Shown here piece after piece: positions 4,237 through 64,000 of a stretch of 64,000 bases of DNA. The notes below the pieces were generated by a model. It was not told the origin of the DNA and ran no database searches. It saw only the letters and a program-made list of their open reading frames with translations. The position numbers were made by a program, and so were the translations under genes. This stretch comes from Utricularia gibba (lineage: Eukaryota; Streptophyta; Magnoliopsida; Lamiales; Lentibulariaceae). Location of the stretch: the NCBI GenBank assembly GCA_002189035.1, contig NEEC01000017.1:2576392-2640391 (forward strand), in the 5' to 3' direction. Within the stretch, counting starts at the first letter, position 1, and every line of letters begins with the position of its first letter.

Positions 4237-7200
4237 TCACGAGTCAAAGTCGACGTTGGAATTCTTTCCGGTGAGGATGCGAGATATTTGAAGCCCCCTG
4301 CTGAAGGCCTCGTTGAAGAGTATCCGCGTCTGCATCTGTTGAAATCCTGGCATCCATGATAGTATGGCCAATGGGACCATTACTATCAATCCAAACAGCA
4401 TGTCGTAGAGGCGAGCCAGGGATACCACTGTCTCCCACACGATGCTGGACTGCAGAAAAGGTCTGAGCACCTGAGCGATGAGAATGAAGCCCCAGCCGGT
4501 GGGAACGAACGCCAGAAGACTTTGCACGAAATCAAGAACAGTGATGTTGGTATAGTACAGTAGTATGACAACCACAGCAACTGTGACTGTGATAACGCCG
4601 AACTGAACCATCCTGTAGTAGATGTGCTGCTTCGCTGAATATTTATCCCGAGCATATGCAACGATGATATAGATGCCCACAGCCACGATCAGGAAGATCC
4701 ATGAGAGCAAGTAAACAGCAATGCTTGTATTTCCGCGGGCGATATTCAAATGGTAAACAACTCCATACTGGAAAAAGAAGAAGCGCAGATCTAAAATGAT
4801 CTCCAACAGTTTTCCCCACAGTCCAGTTGTCCTCAAATGGTCCTGCTCCTCATACCACCATGCCTCCCAGCTCTGCTCAGATTTCACTAGCATCCCTCTG
4901 TACCATATCCACTTTATGAATGCATCAAAGTCGTACACAGTTTTCAGCCAGTCGAAGCCAGATGGATTAAACATGAATGGTGCCATCATCCATGATACCA
5001 CAAGGAACCAACTTGATATCGTCATCAGTATGTAAACAACAGTGTTATTCATACCTAATGGGCTATCAGATGCGTACACGATCAAGATGACCCCAAGTTC
5101 AATGGCCTTGATAAAATGGCTGCGAGCATAGAGTCTGTAATTTTCTACAAAACTCTTGTGCTGCACAACAAAGCCACGCCCGGTGGCACGATATTTGGCA
5201 CCACCGTGAAGGATAGTCCTACCGAAGAAATGAGCACGTGTTCCCATCGAGAATGTGAAGAAAAATGAAGCAAGCTGCAGCTGCATGGTGATAAAATCCC
5301 AAATTGACGGGAGGAAGCCGCGCTCCAGTGAGTTCTCTACAATCATAGGAAGGGCAGTGAAAACTCCGATCTGTATAACAAACTGCTGGTTCAAGATGGC
5401 ACCAAGGGCTCTATTGTTACTGGAATTTCTTGCATGCGCTTCAACACCACTGAGGGCAAGATAAAGGCGCCCCCAAAGAAAAGCAAAAACCATGACAACC
5501 ACCATCATGTTGTTGAAGTAGAACCCAACTGTCGTGTAGAATACAGAAAGCATACGAAAGAAGTCAAGACGATGGCCCAACCTGTATATATCCCTGCTCA
5601 AAACCTGTTCTCCGTTGCCACTGGCAACTTTTGCTTCAAACATAGAAATCTGATTCAATCCAACATCTCTTCCTTTCCCAACTTGTATGTATTCATGGTG
5701 CGTGACGTTGCCACCTCTCAACGTACAGTTGAATCCGGCATAGATATCCTCACTTATGTTGATCACTCTTGAGGCTTTGCTGATACCACCACGAGTCAAA
5801 AACCAGAACCTGTCAAAGACATCAGGATGACCATAGTGCATTCGAACCTTGAGAGGATTCGCCAATACACGTTGACCCAGAGTTACAAAACTCATCTCCT
5901 GTGCAGACATGAACCACGCCAGGGATGAAACAGAACCTGTAAATATGTTTTCGCGAATCCCAGAATGGTAGGCCTTCTAACACCATGACTGACTTTGAAT
6001 TCTTCCAACAGGTTTCGCATCTTCAGTGCCTCCTCGAAACAGTTGTCCTGGTTCATATCGATTGCCTGCAGAGCATCACCACGGGTGAATATTATGGCAT
6101 GGTTTTGGTTCTCAGGCTTACCTTCCCCAAGCTTCAGAGGGCCAGGTAGCTTAATTCGATAGACTTCCACCTCTTTATCTTGTTCATGATCATATTTCAC
6201 CAGAACAGAGTAGTACTCCTCTTCTCTTCCAAGGTTGACTACATCAACATACGCAACACGAAGGGCCTCATTACTTTTCATTAATTTTGATATCTCTTCA
6301 GCACGTGCATCACCTTTTGCCTTGTGAACCCCATACATTTGGCAAGCAACAACGTAAGTGAACTTCATCAGAGCAACTCCATACTCGTGACCTTTGTAAA
6401 GCAGGCTGATACGACCACTTCCAACCGAATCAAGATTCACAGAATTTGATGAACCCAAAGCTTGGATATCAGCGCTACCATTCACCCTCTGTATACGAGA
6501 TGTAGAAATGTCCATAGATCCTTGTCTTATTTCAATCTCGGATGCAGAATCAAAAAATGAAAGCATTTTAAGGGCCCTGTAATAATACATCATCCCTCTG
6601 ACAGTCCGAGCCAATGTTTGACCTCTGTATGAAGCCCACTGCCTGAGGTCCCTAGACTTGGTATTCCATACCTCTGCCTCATCCTGCATTCCTTCCCTTT
6701 TCATACGCTCAATAAAATTTATCCACTCGTCTTCATAAATTTTTTGTAGATAAAACAATGTGGAAATACCATCCTCATTTGGGCTTCTAAGCATTTCTTT
6801 ACCAAACAACACTTCTTCATCGTAGTAAGGAGTCAAGACACTGAAGGCCATCATCTTCTCGACCTGGGGTGCGCGAGGCATGTTCATGAATAATGAATTA
6901 CTGAAGAACGCAATCCTTCTTCTTGCATCGAGATTTTTCGGGACATTGCTCATCGAGTCACGAGAACTAAGGATAGCGTGCAGACGCCGCAACTGCCTGA
7001 AGAAGAAAACGTCTTCAGCATCAGGCCACTGGATTGAATTCTCGAATGGCAGCTCAGTATCAGTACTTCGTTTAAGAGGTGCCAAACCCTCAAGCCCCAA
7101 CTGAGTCACGGACTTCTTCACCCGTGGGAGTTCACGGATAGCAAGTTCATACAATGCTTGAAGCACATTCACCAATTTATCAACATTTTTCTGTGGCGCG

Positions 7201-24576: not shown

Positions 24577-26266
24577 TCAACAAGATTCATGGTCTTCCTC
24601 ATTCTCACATCCACAATCATCCTCATCAATGTCACTCACACTGGCCTGCAAGCTTTCAAGCTGGGCTGTCGCTGACTGTGCAAAAGCAACCAGAGCATCT
24701 CTTGCCAATTTAACTGGCTGAGTTTCAACATCGTCTGTCGCTTTACCCCTCTTGCTCTCAAGCTTCCTACTCCTCATCCACACCGCTTGTCGCTTGGCAT
24801 TCCTACGAAGCAGTTCATCTATGTACCTGTAATGCAAAGCCTTGTTCTTTATTGGCTTCAAAACAGGGGGACTATCAATAGCACCGCCAGCTTCCTGAAT
24901 CTCCACCTCGACCTGCTGCTTTCTATGGGCTGATGATGCCTCGCTGCACTCATGAACAAGGCTACAAGACTTTTGAGATTTTAATGGTGAAAAAAATGCA
25001 CCAATTTGGAAATCTAGAAAAACTGGATCAGTTAACGGCTCCAGGGCAGCGAAGTAATCGCCTTCATGACCTTTGTTTTCATCCTTTTGCTTTTCCAAAA
25101 GACGTCTAACTCTCCTCTGCACTTGAATCCTATTTATTCTGCGAGGCTTGAGCTTCATACCACCTTTATTTGCAGGAATGAGTAGCAACTTACTTGCAGA
25201 GAACGAGGGGGTGATACTGGCTTCTTCCTTATTCCCCTAGAACGTGGTGCCCGTGCTGTTTTCCTCGGAAGATCCGCATATGTTTTGTCAAAGCATTCCT
25301 GTGCTGATTTCCCAGACACCTGCATCAATCAAGGTTCTGAGATGCACAAGAGAAAAGCAGCGGTATCTTATGAATATACAAGTTGAGACATGATAAACAC
25401 AGGAAAGAGGGCGCAGTAGCAGTGGGTAGGCTGCATTATACCAAAAGGATACACTCTCTCGGTTGAACGATTTTCCAGTTGAATCCGAGCGCAATAAGGC
25501 TAATCTTGCGTACGCATCCACATTTACAAGCAAATCTGAATTATCTGGCAAACCAAGAAACTAGCAGGATGTACATATTTACCATCATTGCCACTTCCTT
25601 CCAGAAATTGGGCGTTGGCTTTACGGAAAAAAAAGCTCTACTCAGCGCCAATTCTTGTTCATGCGTCCAACCCTGAAGTAACTGAATCTTTTCATTGACT
25701 TGATCACAATCCATCTCTTCTATCTCATTATTCTCGGACTCCTTGACAGGTTTTTTATGATGGAATCTGGGTGATTCACGGAGATGAGAACAAGGTTTCT
25801 TCACAACTTCAAGGACCCCCTCACCGTGGTTGAGTATGGGTGATCTTCTGAGCGGATTACTTGTTTTCTTCTCGGATTCTGTGTGAAGGAATCTTGGTGA
25901 TTTAGGGAGAAGAGTGTTTGGTTTCTTCACATCACCTACGACACTCTCTCCGTGGCTGAATCTGGGTGATCGTCGGAGCAGACTCCTAGATGTCTCCTCG
26001 GACTCTGTGAGAGTCTGTGCAGGATGAAATCTCGGTGATTTACGGAGATGAGTCTTTGCAGTGTTGACGACCCCCTCCCCGTGGCTGAATCTGGGTGATC
26101 GTCGGAGCAGACTCCTAGATGTCTCCTCGGACTCTGTGAGAGTCTGTGCAGGATGGAATCTCGGTGATTTACGGAGATGAGTCTTTGCAGTGTTGACGAC
26201 CCCCTCTCCGTGGCTGAATCTGGAGGTTTTTTCATCGACACCCCGGCGGTGGGTCGTATGCCGCAT
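24577..26266 (-). CDS. SANT/Myb-domain protein with SPRF repeats, frame break in exon 2
   Basis: A plant protein I recognise only by domain. Exon 1 (25583-26266) encodes seven or eight copies of an S-P-R-F motif (forms RKSPRFHP, RRSPRFSH, PKSPRFLH, RESPRFHH) and then the first part of a SANT domain, LQGWTHEQELALSRAFF...TPNFWKEVA. Exon 2 (24577-25319) completes it with VSGKSAQECFDKTYADLP, followed by a Lys/Arg-rich segment (KLKPRRINRIQVQRRVRRL), a conserved-looking YIDELLRRNAKRQAVW and an acidic tail (SDIDEDDCG). SANT domains bind histone tails or DNA, so a nuclear role is likely. The frame breaks at the G run 25207-25211; one extra base joins PVSPP to FSASKLLLIP and gives 476 codons. The Met at 26338 is an alternative start. 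Confidence 0.75.
25962..26219. repeat. Tandem 129-bp coding repeat inside the SANT-protein gene
   Basis: Two adjacent copies, 25962-26090 and 26091-26219, differ at only two positions that I can see. The unit is 43 codons, so the duplication keeps the frame and adds two SPRF motifs per copy. More diverged copies continue to the left, down to about 25750. Confidence 0.85.
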
Positions 26267-59900: not shown

Positions 59901-62732
59901 GAAAGCTGAATAGAAATAAGTATCATCCAGCAGAAAAGGCCAATGAAGCTTCAACTGAGGACAAGGGAAGTCCAGATGCAGCAAGTACTGCCGTGCTACG
60001 CTTTACCATATAGTTCCATCAAAGCAAGTGCTGTCCGAAAAAGCATCACCCGATTTCCCTCAAAGAGAAGAACATCCCAAACCCTGAGAACTGGATGCAT
60101 GGCATATCATATGAGGCCCACACAAATTTGGTTTCAGTAAGCCTCCAACTTTCCCATGAATGGGAAAGAAAAGTTTAAAGAATGATGAATCAGATTAAGA
60201 ATCTCACCACTTTCCCAAGGAAGCATATTCATAAATATTGTCAAGAACCATGGCCCAGTGACCCAGGCCACCTGCACTCCCAAGTAATCCAGATGATTTA
60301 CTGCATAAAACAAAAAAAATTATGGAGAACCCCAAAGTATACTGAAGTACGTTCTACCATGGAGCATGAGGGAGAAGATGCTATAGGAAAACAAACCCAA
60401 TTTAGGAAATCTTTCTCGCACCAAATCCTCAAGTACAAGCTGATCAACCTGCCAGGAGAAAATACCAGACGCAAATGAGCATCAATGATGTGTCTATCTA
60501 ATAGAAGAAACAGAAAATTGGGGGCAATATGCCACGGAAAATCCACATGATACCTGAAATTCTATCATTTCTTCAGAAAAATACCCATCAAAATAATAAT
60601 CAAGAATACCTAATAGTGACCTGAAATATGACAATTTCATTTGCTAATTAAATACATAATATATTAAAAAGTGCATATTTTCAAGATTCAACCCACCAAA
60701 ATGCATTTTCTTCTGGCATCAGAAGCAACAACAAACCTGCAAAGAAATTCATGGCCTGCATAGAAAAAATAATGATGAGGGTAGTTGTAAGTAGAAGCGT
60801 CAAATAAATCACTACAGATATTGAGCATTGAATATAGTTTGAAAGAGCAAGCAGGCCTAAAACCTGCCTGTTAATTGTCTGGTACGCACCTGGCAGTAGC
60901 CAACCATGGGATTATGGCGTGCATATGCTGTAAGTAAGCGCCTCAATGCATTTCTTCCATTTTCATCCAAAGCAGGATGGCCAGGAAATGTTCGAGGTAA
61001 ATCCTTTAGCAAAATACATGCACTTGGAGATTTCAAATCAATGGAATTTAGGTGGCTGAAGCATACTTTCTAATTTCGAAACTATAGAACAACAACCTTC
61101 TCTATTTGGAGCCTCCACTTTTCAGGCGCACCAGCCACTTGCTTTTCTGGGTTTGATTTCAGTTTATTCACCTCATCGTCCATATTCTCTACATCCATAT
61201 CTGGAATGAGCAAATTTTGATAGTACTTTTCTACTCGATGTGCTCTAACACCAATAAAGGCTTGCCAGATCTGTCATTATAAGCATGCATAGTAAATAAT
61301 GTACACAGAATGAGGAAGGGACATACAAAAAATGGTCAACATGTCCTTGCCTCTCCCCTTAGTGCCATTGGGACACCACCTTGAACAAGACATTCCAATT
61401 CCTCCATCCAAGCAAGTTGTGTATCTAGCTTGGTAGAATGAATAGCAGCTATTGATGTTGCAGCTTGAATATTATCTCCAGGAGACATGTCTTGAACATC
61501 TGATTCTGATTTCTCCAAATCATAGAACTCTTCCTCAGAGTCATCTTCTGATGCTCCTTTCCCATGTCTAGAATCCAGAGTGGGAAGAAGTTCCTTTCTA
61601 GTAGCAGAATTTGGCTTGTTCTTTGCTACACTTGGCCTCCTCATATTTGAGCTTACCATCTCCTCTATAGCATGCAGCGGAGGCCTGATTTCAGACCATA
61701 TGTGCACTTGATTTTTTTCATCTGCCAACCAAGGATGATCTCCTTTGCTCAGATGCTTGGCCTGGGGCTTTTCCCCATCTAATTCATCAGTACGAACTGC
61801 AAGTTGTCGAAAATCCCGTTTTTCTTATATTTTGAATTTAAAAGAAACCCTCTTTATGGATCTAGTAATTCCAACGATTTACCTGCAGAAATCTGAGCAG
61901 AACCAGATTGCCTTCCCAGGAAATCCTTCCACCTATCTGACCTCTCCTCCTCTTCTTCCTAAAAGCAGACAAGACATTGCTTTTACAGGGCATGGTCGGG
62001 AAAACAGATAAGCAACACTCAAGATCTTCGTTTGTTGTAGGTAGTAATATCAAATTCAAAAGCGGCGAAGGGATGCTTAGTGAGTTAAAAACCTTGTAGA
62101 TACTAGCATACTCCTTGTATCTATGCAAATGCTGGGGTCTGATCGCAAATCCATAAACGTCCCTGTTAATCCAAGTTCCCATGTTCAGTGGAGGACTAAA
62201 TTAAAAAACTAATCACATCTCTAGCCTGGTAAATTTTATTTCATTGAACGGCAAGCCGGACAAAAATATCAAGAGGAGACAAATGGAAGAAAGAAAAAAT
62301 ACGCATCGTAGATAACTTTTTAGGTTTCCCTCAATAAGCAACTCTTACATAGATGATACTTATCTCAGTAAAAAATGTTCGGGTTTGACATATTTTGAGA
62401 GGAATAGAGTTTTTTATCCCAAATCTTTACAAAACAGACAACGGCAGTATCCTGCTCACCGGAAGAACACAGTATAGAAAGACTCGAGAACATCGTCAAA
62501 ATTGTAACAATAATTCACCAATTCCAACCTTCAGTACAACATCGGAAAATCCTTGGACATTACGGTGAGAGGTCAAGATGCAAGATGCAAAATGCTAGAA
62601 ACTACGAATGAATTATCATCAGCAGACACATGGAACAAGAAATAACTGGCGGTACCGTTTGTAGTCAAAAGAAACACCCGGAGTTTGACTAATCACATCG
62701 GTTGCCGCCTTCGCTGCTCCTTTAGCCTTCAT
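56920..62732 (-). CDS. RabGAP/TBC-domain protein
   Basis: A GTPase-activating protein for Rab GTPases, resembling Arabidopsis At3g55020. Eighteen exons from 62656-62732 to 56920-57175 sum to 809 codons (808 residues). N-terminal: MKAKGAAKAATDVI, then DVYGFAIRPQHLHRYKEYAS and an acidic linker. The TBC domain begins at LVQGGVPMALRGE and carries both catalytic fingers: Arg in DLPRTFPGHP and Gln in MVGYCQAMNFF; WSLLGILDYYFDGYFSEEM, VTGPWFLTIFMNMLPWE and VWDVLLFEGNRVMLF follow. The C-terminal third is coiled coil (ELETALVEMVKLDNRRELSAR, VEQLEREISELQQALVDK). The intron after exon 4 starts GC (61350-61349). It is the gene nearest to the chromosome end, starting about 970 bp from the telomeric array. 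No frame break. Confidence 0.94.
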
Positions 62733-63699
62733 TTTCGGAAACAGGCAGATCACGAGAGACAAGTTCCGTTGCTATTTTGATAGGCCCGATCTATTTCCAG
62801 GAGTCCGCCGGGACTTTCTGCAGCAGGATATTATACCAAGGGCTAATAATGCGCAAGTGTGTTCTTGATGCCCGGCTTCTCATTTTCACAGTAAATAAAC
62901 AGCTTCAGTTTCAGAGTCGTGGGAGACCGCCATCATCATCACGTGGAGAGTGGGACTGGAGGTTTTTTTTTTTTTTTTGAGAAGATTTTACCTGTCAAAC
63001 CGCGATCTCAAATATGATTTAGGGCTCGGTGGTGATTGGTGAATGACGTGCAGTGTGTTCATAATGGGACAACTAAGATGTTTTGTAGAATACATAACCG
63101 GTAACTTTAAATGCTAATTTGGTAGAGTAATGTGGATTTGGAGATTATATGAATGATTTGAGTTTGAAAATTAAAATATGTTTTATGGTGTTTAAAACTT
63201 CTTGATTGCATTTTTCATCAACACCTTAGAGATTGGTCAATGTCGTCTTGGTGTATGTAGGAAACTAACGAATATGAATCCTGTACTTATCACTAATTTT
63301 AATATCCTTTATCATGATCCACTACCTGTACTCTATTCAGTAGTCCATGGTGGACTACCAATATGTCGGTGGACTCATCTTAAGACTGTCTGCCAAGTTC
63401 TGTAACCTCACACGCTCTAGCTAATGACATATGCAAGAAAGAGGATAATTTTATTTATCATGAAAATGCAAAGTTCACTAATAGAAAGCATGTGCATGTC
63501 CAAAGCCAAAAACTAGGAAGTACGCAAATGCCACCGACGAAACCCTCCCATCATTGTCCAAAAGCCATCCCTCCCTCTAGTGCTTTCTTCATCACTCAAA
63601 CCAACAATGATAACAAACATCTTGCTATCGACCTCATATTCCACACATAAAGGATAGGTTTAGCATTTAGGATTCACCGTTCCGTTTACGATTTTAGTG
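62733..63699. other. Subtelomeric spacer and RabGAP upstream region
   Basis: The RabGAP promoter occupies the left part. No satellite, transposon or gene is recognisable. The last 50 bp before 63700 already contain decayed TTTAG-like words. Confidence 0.5.
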
Positions 63700-64000
63700 C
63701 TTTAGGGTTTAGCGTTTAGGGTTTAGCGTTTAGGGTTCAGGGTTAAGGGTTCAGCGTTCATGGTTGAGGATTAAGGGTTCAGCGTTCATGGTTGAGGATT
63801 CATGGTTGAGGGTTCAGGGTTCAGCATTCATGGTTGAGGTTCAGGGTTTAGGGTTTAGGGTTCAGGGTTTTAGGGTTTAGGGTTAGGGTTTAGGGTTCAG
63901 GGTTTAGGGTTCAGGGTTTAGGGTTCAGGTTTCAGGGTTTAGGGTTTAGGGTTTAGGGTTCAGGTTCAGGGTTCAGGGTTTAGGGTTCAGGGTTCAGGGT
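63700..64000 (+). repeat. Telomere-like array of mixed TTTAGGG and TTCAGGG
   Basis: The last 301 bases are almost entirely 7-mers in one register, G-rich strand reading towards the right end, as at a right-hand chromosome end. By hand I count about 14 TTTAGGG and 11 TTCAGGG. The left half is degenerate (TTTAGCG, TTCAGCG, TTCATGG, TTGAGGA, TTAAGGG); the right half is cleaner, with occasional 6-mers (TTCAGG, TTAGGG) and 8-mers. It runs off the window, so the true end may be further right. Confidence 0.9.

What the first reader, a model, noticed from the sequence alone, without database searches (positions are those of the whole stretch)
63700..64000. Telomere array mixing TTTAGGG with TTCAGGG units
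The plant standard is TTTAGGG. Here nearly half of the clean units are TTCAGGG, interspersed to the end of the window rather than confined to the degenerate inner part. Known Genlisea species of the Lentibulariaceae have replaced TTTAGGG by TTCAGG/TTTCAGG, so a 7-mer with T-to-C at the third position could be an intermediate state, two telomerase RNA templates, or old subtelomeric variants.
Basis: partly seen in the sequence, partly recalled or inferred. Interest (0 to 1): 0.8.

Follow-up and report, generated by a model that had tools for sequence, protein, structure and literature searches.

The report
Inner telomere repeats with TTCAGGG variants
The window ends in the inner part of an ordinary plant telomere whose TTTAGGG repeats are mixed with TTCAGGG; the same variant sits in the inner zone of most telomeres found in this genome and fades towards the tips, and a newly found candidate telomerase RNA has a template whose edge could write exactly that variant.

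Summary
The mix is real: 13 TTTAGGG and 10 TTCAGGG units in 63700-64000. But the window stops exactly at the end of an assembled contig (C328, base 2,640,391), so the array is cut off after 300 bp. I compared 21 telomeric contig ends of the same ~100 Mb genome (probably Utricularia gibba; species not tested). TTCAGGG is 24-28% of clean units in the first 200 bp from the inner edge, about 5% beyond 300 bp and zero beyond 900 bp; many ends close with 20-88 consecutive clean TTTAGGG. This is a proximal variant zone, not a chromosome capped by a mixed repeat.

The new point is specificity. T3->C occurs 119 times, any other substitution at most 6, and T1C, T2C and A4G never. Random decay does not do that. 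I found one telomerase-RNA candidate elsewhere on C328: a U6-like Pol III promoter, strong fold, template 5'-AUGAACCCUAAACC-3'. Copying one or two bases past AACCC adds C(A), and realignment then gives TTCAGGG. So TTCAGGG may be a minor product of a single template. That is inferred, not shown. Mixed TTTAGGG/TTCAGGG telomeres are known in Capsicum, and TTCAGGG as a proximal variant in Arabidopsis.

The parts
63655..63700 (+). transition from unique subtelomeric DNA to telomere-like sequence (TTTAGCATTTAGGATTCA...)
   Evidence: read directly
63701..63837 (+). degenerate inner part of the telomere array (TTCATGG, TTGAGG, TTAAGGG, few clean units)
63838..64000 (+). clean mixed zone of TTTAGGG and TTCAGGG units, G-rich strand reading towards the chromosome end; cut by the contig end at 64000

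Best explanation
This is the proximal (centromere-side) variant zone of a normal TTTAGGG telomere, cut off after 300 bp because the contig ends there. Distally the telomere is expected to become (nearly) all TTTAGGG, as at the other ends. The TTCAGGG units were most likely written by telomerase rather than made by random decay. The single candidate telomerase RNA has the template region 5'-AUGAACCCUAAACC-3'. Normally telomerase copies CCAAAUCCCAA (3'->5') and stops before the G, giving TTTAGGG. When it overshoots by one or two bases it adds C or CA. The end ...GGGTTC(A) then realigns on ...UAAACC with one C.A mismatch, and the next unit is TTCAGGG. Once such units lie internally they are copied by ordinary replication and persist. 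Shown: the mixture, the contig end, the gradient across ends, the T3C specificity, and the presence and sequence of the candidate RNA gene. Inferred: that this gene is the functional telomerase RNA, the overshoot-and-realign step, and why the inner zone is richer than the tips. Sub-confidences: proximal zone of a TTTAGGG telomere ~0.9; telomerase origin of TTCAGGG ~0.6; this exact template-edge mechanism ~0.45.
For: Window end = contig end. Across 21 ends the TTCAGGG fraction by distance from the inner edge is 28, 24, 13, 5, 5, 6, 4, 3, 4, 0 ... %; inner half 117/695, outer half 44/709, Fisher p = 3e-10; 63 and 88 clean TTTAGGG units lie distal to the last TTCAGGG at C411 and C413. Substitution spectrum: T3C 119, next A4C 6 and G7T 6; T1C, T2C, A4G none. 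Candidate telomerase RNA G000:C328:1624300-1624586 (-): USE TCCCACATCGG and a TATA-like GGTTTAAAAAG with the same 21-nt spacing as in the U6 gene L095 of this genome; template matching 11 nt of the telomere; G-rich 5' part; 13-bp helix just 5' of the template; end-closing helix GGGGGCGAT/GTCGCCCTC; T-run terminator. Fold energy -124.5 against -92.2 +/- 4.7 for shuffles, z = -6.9. It is the only one of ~50 USE-anchored loci with all these features, and the only copy found.
Against: A constant overshoot rate predicts TTCAGGG evenly along the array, whereas the assembly shows a steep decline. Consensus calling over cells with different tips could erase minority units, but no reads were available to test this. 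TTCAGGG is also called a high-frequency variant in Arabidopsis (PMC11406999), whose template 5'-CUAAACCCU-3' does not offer this overshoot, so another site-specific cause may exist. The end-closing helix alone is not rare by chance (314 of 5000 shuffles). No relative of the RNA was available for a covariation test, and the pseudoknot was not established. Some ends share T/C words slightly more often than shuffles (5 pairs, mean 1.3), so ends are not fully independent. Ends were picked partly by motifs containing TTCAGGG.
Confidence: 0.55

Rival explanations
1. Plain subtelomeric decay: internal TTTAGGG units mutate once telomerase no longer renews them, and slippage or unequal exchange spreads some variants. 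This is the scenario given for Arabidopsis.
For: Same inner-to-outer order of degenerate, variant and canonical repeats as in Arabidopsis (PMC11406999). The innermost part of the window is plainly degenerate. TTCAGGG runs such as the 8-unit run at C3 look amplified.
Against: Random mutation should also give T1C, T2C, A4G and G->A; these are 0, 0, 0 and 1 against 119 T3C, over ends with different unit orders. Slippage spreads variants but does not choose one position.
Confidence: 0.25
2. Two telomerase RNA genes, one templating TTTAGGG and one TTCAGGG, as in Capsicum.
For: Capsicum chinense has exactly this TT[T/C]AGGG mixture with two paralogous telomerase RNAs (PMC12134996 citing Zavodnik et al. 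2023). TR duplication is common in plants with mixed telomeres (PMC12133305, PMC12169523).
Against: DNA search with the candidate RNA finds only itself up to E = 10. USE-anchored searches for CCCTGAA-type templates gave no locus with a promoter and template together.
Confidence: 0.1
3. A living mixed telomere: TTCAGGG is added at a substantial rate all the way to the tips, and the distal purity in the assembly is a consensus artefact.
For: Single-copy template able to code both units. Distal units differ between cells, so a consensus would outvote a minority unit (reasoning). TTCAGGG still appears here and there up to 900 bp.
Against: 88 and 63 consecutive clean TTTAGGG units at C413 and C411. 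No read-level evidence.
Confidence: 0.2
4. Sequencing or assembly error produced T->C at one position.
For: Error-prone long reads are hard to polish in telomeres; 1-bp indels are frequent in these arrays.
Against: Raw PacBio errors are mostly indels (general knowledge). T3C appears on contigs ending in both orientations, in end-specific orders, and falls away just where reads are fewest.
Confidence: 0.04

Closest known systems
Proximal degenerate/variant telomeric repeats of Arabidopsis thaliana (PMC11406999)
   Same: Order from inside out of degenerate, variant and canonical units; TTCAGGG named as a high-frequency variant; end-specific patterns.
   Different: Arabidopsis has a broad spectrum (462 unit types); here one substitution makes up about three quarters of all single-base variants. 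The Arabidopsis template is 5'-CUAAACCCU-3'.
Capsicum telomeres TT[T/C]AGGG with two telomerase RNA paralogues (Zavodnik et al. 2023, as reported in PMC12134996 and PMC12133305)
   Same: Same two units, mixed.
   Different: In Capsicum both are made by telomerase from two RNA genes and label chromosome ends by FISH; here only one RNA candidate was found and TTCAGGG fades outwards in the assembly.
Genlisea hispidula telomeres, TTCAGG/TTTCAGG (Tran et al. 2015, cited in PMC6765143)
   Same: Same family if the organism is Utricularia; intermingled units with a C at the end of the T run.
   Different: 6/7-mers with GG, and the canonical unit is replaced; here canonical TTTAGGG dominates.
Agave tequilana and Nolina bigelovii telomerase RNA templates (PMC6765143)
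   Same: Precedent for one template region predicted to yield mixed motifs.
   Different: The mixture there is TTAGGG with TTTAGGG.
Cycas pericentromeric TTCAGGG blocks (PMC9827991) and Papaver dahlianum TTCAGGG (PMC11258133)
   Same: Same variant unit in other plants.
   Different: Cycas: megabase pericentromeric blocks, judged not telomerase-made; Papaver: reported from k-mers as the main repeat.

Membership tests
Plant (Arabidopsis-type) telomere, proximal variant zone | Array terminal on a contig, G-rich strand towards the end | tested here: met
   Contig end at window base 64000; all ends oriented alike
Plant (Arabidopsis-type) telomere, proximal variant zone | Variant units concentrated at the inner side, canonical outside | tested here: met
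   28% to 0% gradient over 21 ends; for the C328 end itself the outer part is missing
Mixed telomere made by telomerase (Capsicum type) | Both units at chromosome tips / in telomerase products | not testable with these tools
   No reads, TRAP or FISH; in assembled consensus the tips are nearly pure TTTAGGG
Mixed telomere made by telomerase (Capsicum type) | Two telomerase RNA paralogues differing at the template | tested here: not met
   One locus found; diverged copies could be missed
Plant telomerase RNA gene (candidate C328:1624300-1624586, -) | USE and TATA with Pol III type-3 spacing | tested here: met
   TCCCACATCGG, 21 nt, GGTTTAAAAAG; same spacing in the U6 gene L095
Plant telomerase RNA gene (candidate C328:1624300-1624586, -) | Template at least one base longer than the telomere unit | tested here: met
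   AACCCTAAACC, 11 nt; nt 44-55 including the preceding G
Plant telomerase RNA gene (candidate C328:1624300-1624586, -) | Length 234-390 nt, G-rich 5' part, C-rich 3' part, terminator | tested here: met
   286 nt, T-run at 1624304-1624300
Plant telomerase RNA gene (candidate C328:1624300-1624586, -) | Template/pseudoknot (P2/P3), P4-P6 and P1 closing stem | tested here: inconclusive
   Stable fold z = -6.9 with open template, P1-like stems; pseudoknot not tested, no homologues for covariation
Plant telomerase RNA gene (candidate C328:1624300-1624586, -) | Transcribed and bound by TERT | not testable with these tools
   no RNA data

The most novel reading that the evidence does not exclude
One telomerase RNA with a two-faced template (UGAACCC-UAAACC) makes both TTTAGGG and TTCAGGG by variable stopping at the template's 5' edge. 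Telomere sequence switching in Lentibulariaceae would then have started from boundary slippage on one gene rather than from gene duplication. The tips would be mixed cell by cell, with the assembly hiding it.
Probability: 0.25. Interest if true: 0.65.

Novelty: new member of a known kind. Interest (0 to 1): 0.38.

Why it matters
By itself the array is an ordinary inner telomere. What could matter is the match between an almost single-site variant spectrum and a template whose 5' edge codes that very base. Current models for plant telomere change rest on duplicated telomerase RNAs (PMC12133305, PMC12169523). A single template with a leaky boundary would be a simpler route, testable in this plant and its Genlisea relatives with existing long reads and a TRAP assay.

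Tried and rejected
Six USE-anchored pattern searches with different spacings and template permutations. The first two gave nothing and the next three gave only coding or telo-box loci. L065 looked promising but is coding sequence; L092 (10-nt telomere match) has the wrong USE-TATA spacing and an inverted telo-box nearby; L074, L075/L089 and L084 lack a promoter. Rfam has no plant telomerase RNA hit at the locus. Copying of one array between ends as the source of all TTCAGGG was tested by shared unit words: slight excess only. C-C clustering of variant units is not significant (33 versus 28.5, 61 of 500 shuffles). Indel density along arrays does not cleanly separate true purity from consensus smoothing.

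Full report
Observation. The last 300 bases hold one 7-bp array. Exact units are 13 TTTAGGG and 10 TTCAGGG. The inner half is degenerate, the outer half a clean mixture that runs to the last base. The genome search places the window at C328:2576392-2640391 and the contig is 2,640,391 bases long: the array is terminal in the assembly and cut off there. The genome has 100,091,633 bases in 516 contigs, which fits the PacBio assembly of Utricularia gibba as I remember it; I did not test the species.

Other ends. Patterns of three TTTAGGG, three TTCAGGG, and mixed pairs led to 21 contig ends, which I fetched and parsed. Measured from the inner edge of each array, the fraction of TTCAGGG among clean units is 0.28, 0.24, 0.13, 0.05, 0.05, 0.06, 0.04, 0.03, 0.04 per 100 bp and then zero. 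C413 closes with 88 and C411 with 63 clean TTTAGGG units after the last TTCAGGG. Thus C328 shows only the zone in which all ends look mixed. Its share (10 of 24) is a little above that of the others' first 300 bp (118 of 568; p = 0.022). Caveat: ends were partly found by motifs containing TTCAGGG, so pure ends may be under-represented; and an assembly is a consensus, in which units that differ between cells at the tips would be outvoted.

What kind of variant. Among clean 7-mers flanked by other units on both sides there are 119 T3->C in 19 ends, against 6 A4C, 6 G7T and fewer of all others; T1C, T2C and A4G are absent and G->A occurs once. Decay by mutation cannot easily favour one of three adjacent Ts so strongly, and amplification by slippage has no reason to choose that position in many ends with different unit orders. 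Shared unit words between ends are slightly more frequent than in shuffles (5 pairs versus 1.3), so some exchange is likely, but it does not explain the spectrum.

Telomerase RNA candidate. Plant telomerase RNAs are Pol III transcripts with USE TCCCACAT in Lamiales, a TATA box 28-30 bp downstream, length 234-390 nt, and the template within 200 nt of the USE (PMC6765143, PMC12169523, PMC12133305). Searches anchored on the USE gave about 50 loci, most at the rate of the reversed control pattern. One, on the same contig (L085, minus strand), has everything together: TCCCACATCGG, 21 nt, GGTTTAAAAAG, then a 286-nt unit with a G-rich 5' part, ATGAACCCTAAACC at nt 42-55, a 13-bp helix before the template, a 9-bp helix joining the two ends, and TTTTT. 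The U6 gene L095 of this genome has the same USE and the same 21 nt before GGTTTA. The RNA folds at -124.5 kcal/mol against -92.2 +/- 4.7 for shuffles, and the template can stay open at a cost of about 1 kcal/mol. There is one copy. I regard it as the likely telomerase RNA (about 0.85), without expression data and without homologues for a covariation test. The end-joining helix alone is not rare by chance (314 of 5000 shuffles).

Mechanism. Copying 3'-CCAAAUCCCAA-5' yields GGTTTAGGGTT; GGTT realigns on AACC and the next round gives TTTAGGG. The next template bases are G and U. Copying them yields GGGTTC or GGGTTCA, which realigns on UAAACC with one C.A mismatch (in the second case with a paired 3' end) and continues to AGGG: TTCAGGG (enumeration, register read by me from that output). 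The base that this edge changes is the one observed to vary. The gradient remains the weak point: either overshoot is rare and inner units are old and enriched by processes not identified here, or consensus calling hides it at the tips.

Known context. In Arabidopsis, degenerate, variant and canonical repeats follow each other outwards and TTCAGGG is a high-frequency variant (PMC11406999), although the template there is CUAAACCCU; this is the main argument that something other than the template edge can make TTCAGGG. In Capsicum, TTTAGGG and TTCAGGG are both telomerase-made from two RNA paralogues (PMC12134996). In Genlisea hispidula TTCAGG and TTTCAGG replace the canonical unit (PMC6765143). 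Mixed products from one template have been predicted for Agave and Nolina (PMC6765143).

Verdict. The stronger idea, that this is a telomere in transition, is not supported at the level of the assembly; a templated origin of the variant is plausible and testable.

Noticed in passing
L085 (G000:C328:1624300-1624650, minus strand), outside the window: Strong candidate telomerase RNA gene with template AUGAACCCUAAACC and a U6-like Pol III promoter; single copy.
   Followed up: yes
window 60681-61069, minus strand: Exons of a Rab-GTPase-activating TBC-domain gene (RabGAP-TBC, E = 9e-10 for one exon) lie about 2.6 kb from the telomere array, so coding sequence comes close to this chromosome end.
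   Followed up: partly
window 6526-6604, minus strand: Plant C/D-box snoRNA snoJ33 (Rfam RF00315, 70 bits).
   Followed up: no
window 25758-26223: Diverged tandem repeat of about 126-129 bp, 2-3 copies (TRF); not examined for coding.
   Followed up: no
G000:C3:824-879 (L002-L007): A run of eight consecutive TTCAGGG units in an inner telomere zone, the longest seen, which suggests local amplification.
   Followed up: no
G000:C413:3021609-3021645: Interstitial telomere-like array with mixed TTTAGGG/TTCAGGG far from any contig end; it could be an old fusion point or inserted telomere piece.
   Followed up: no
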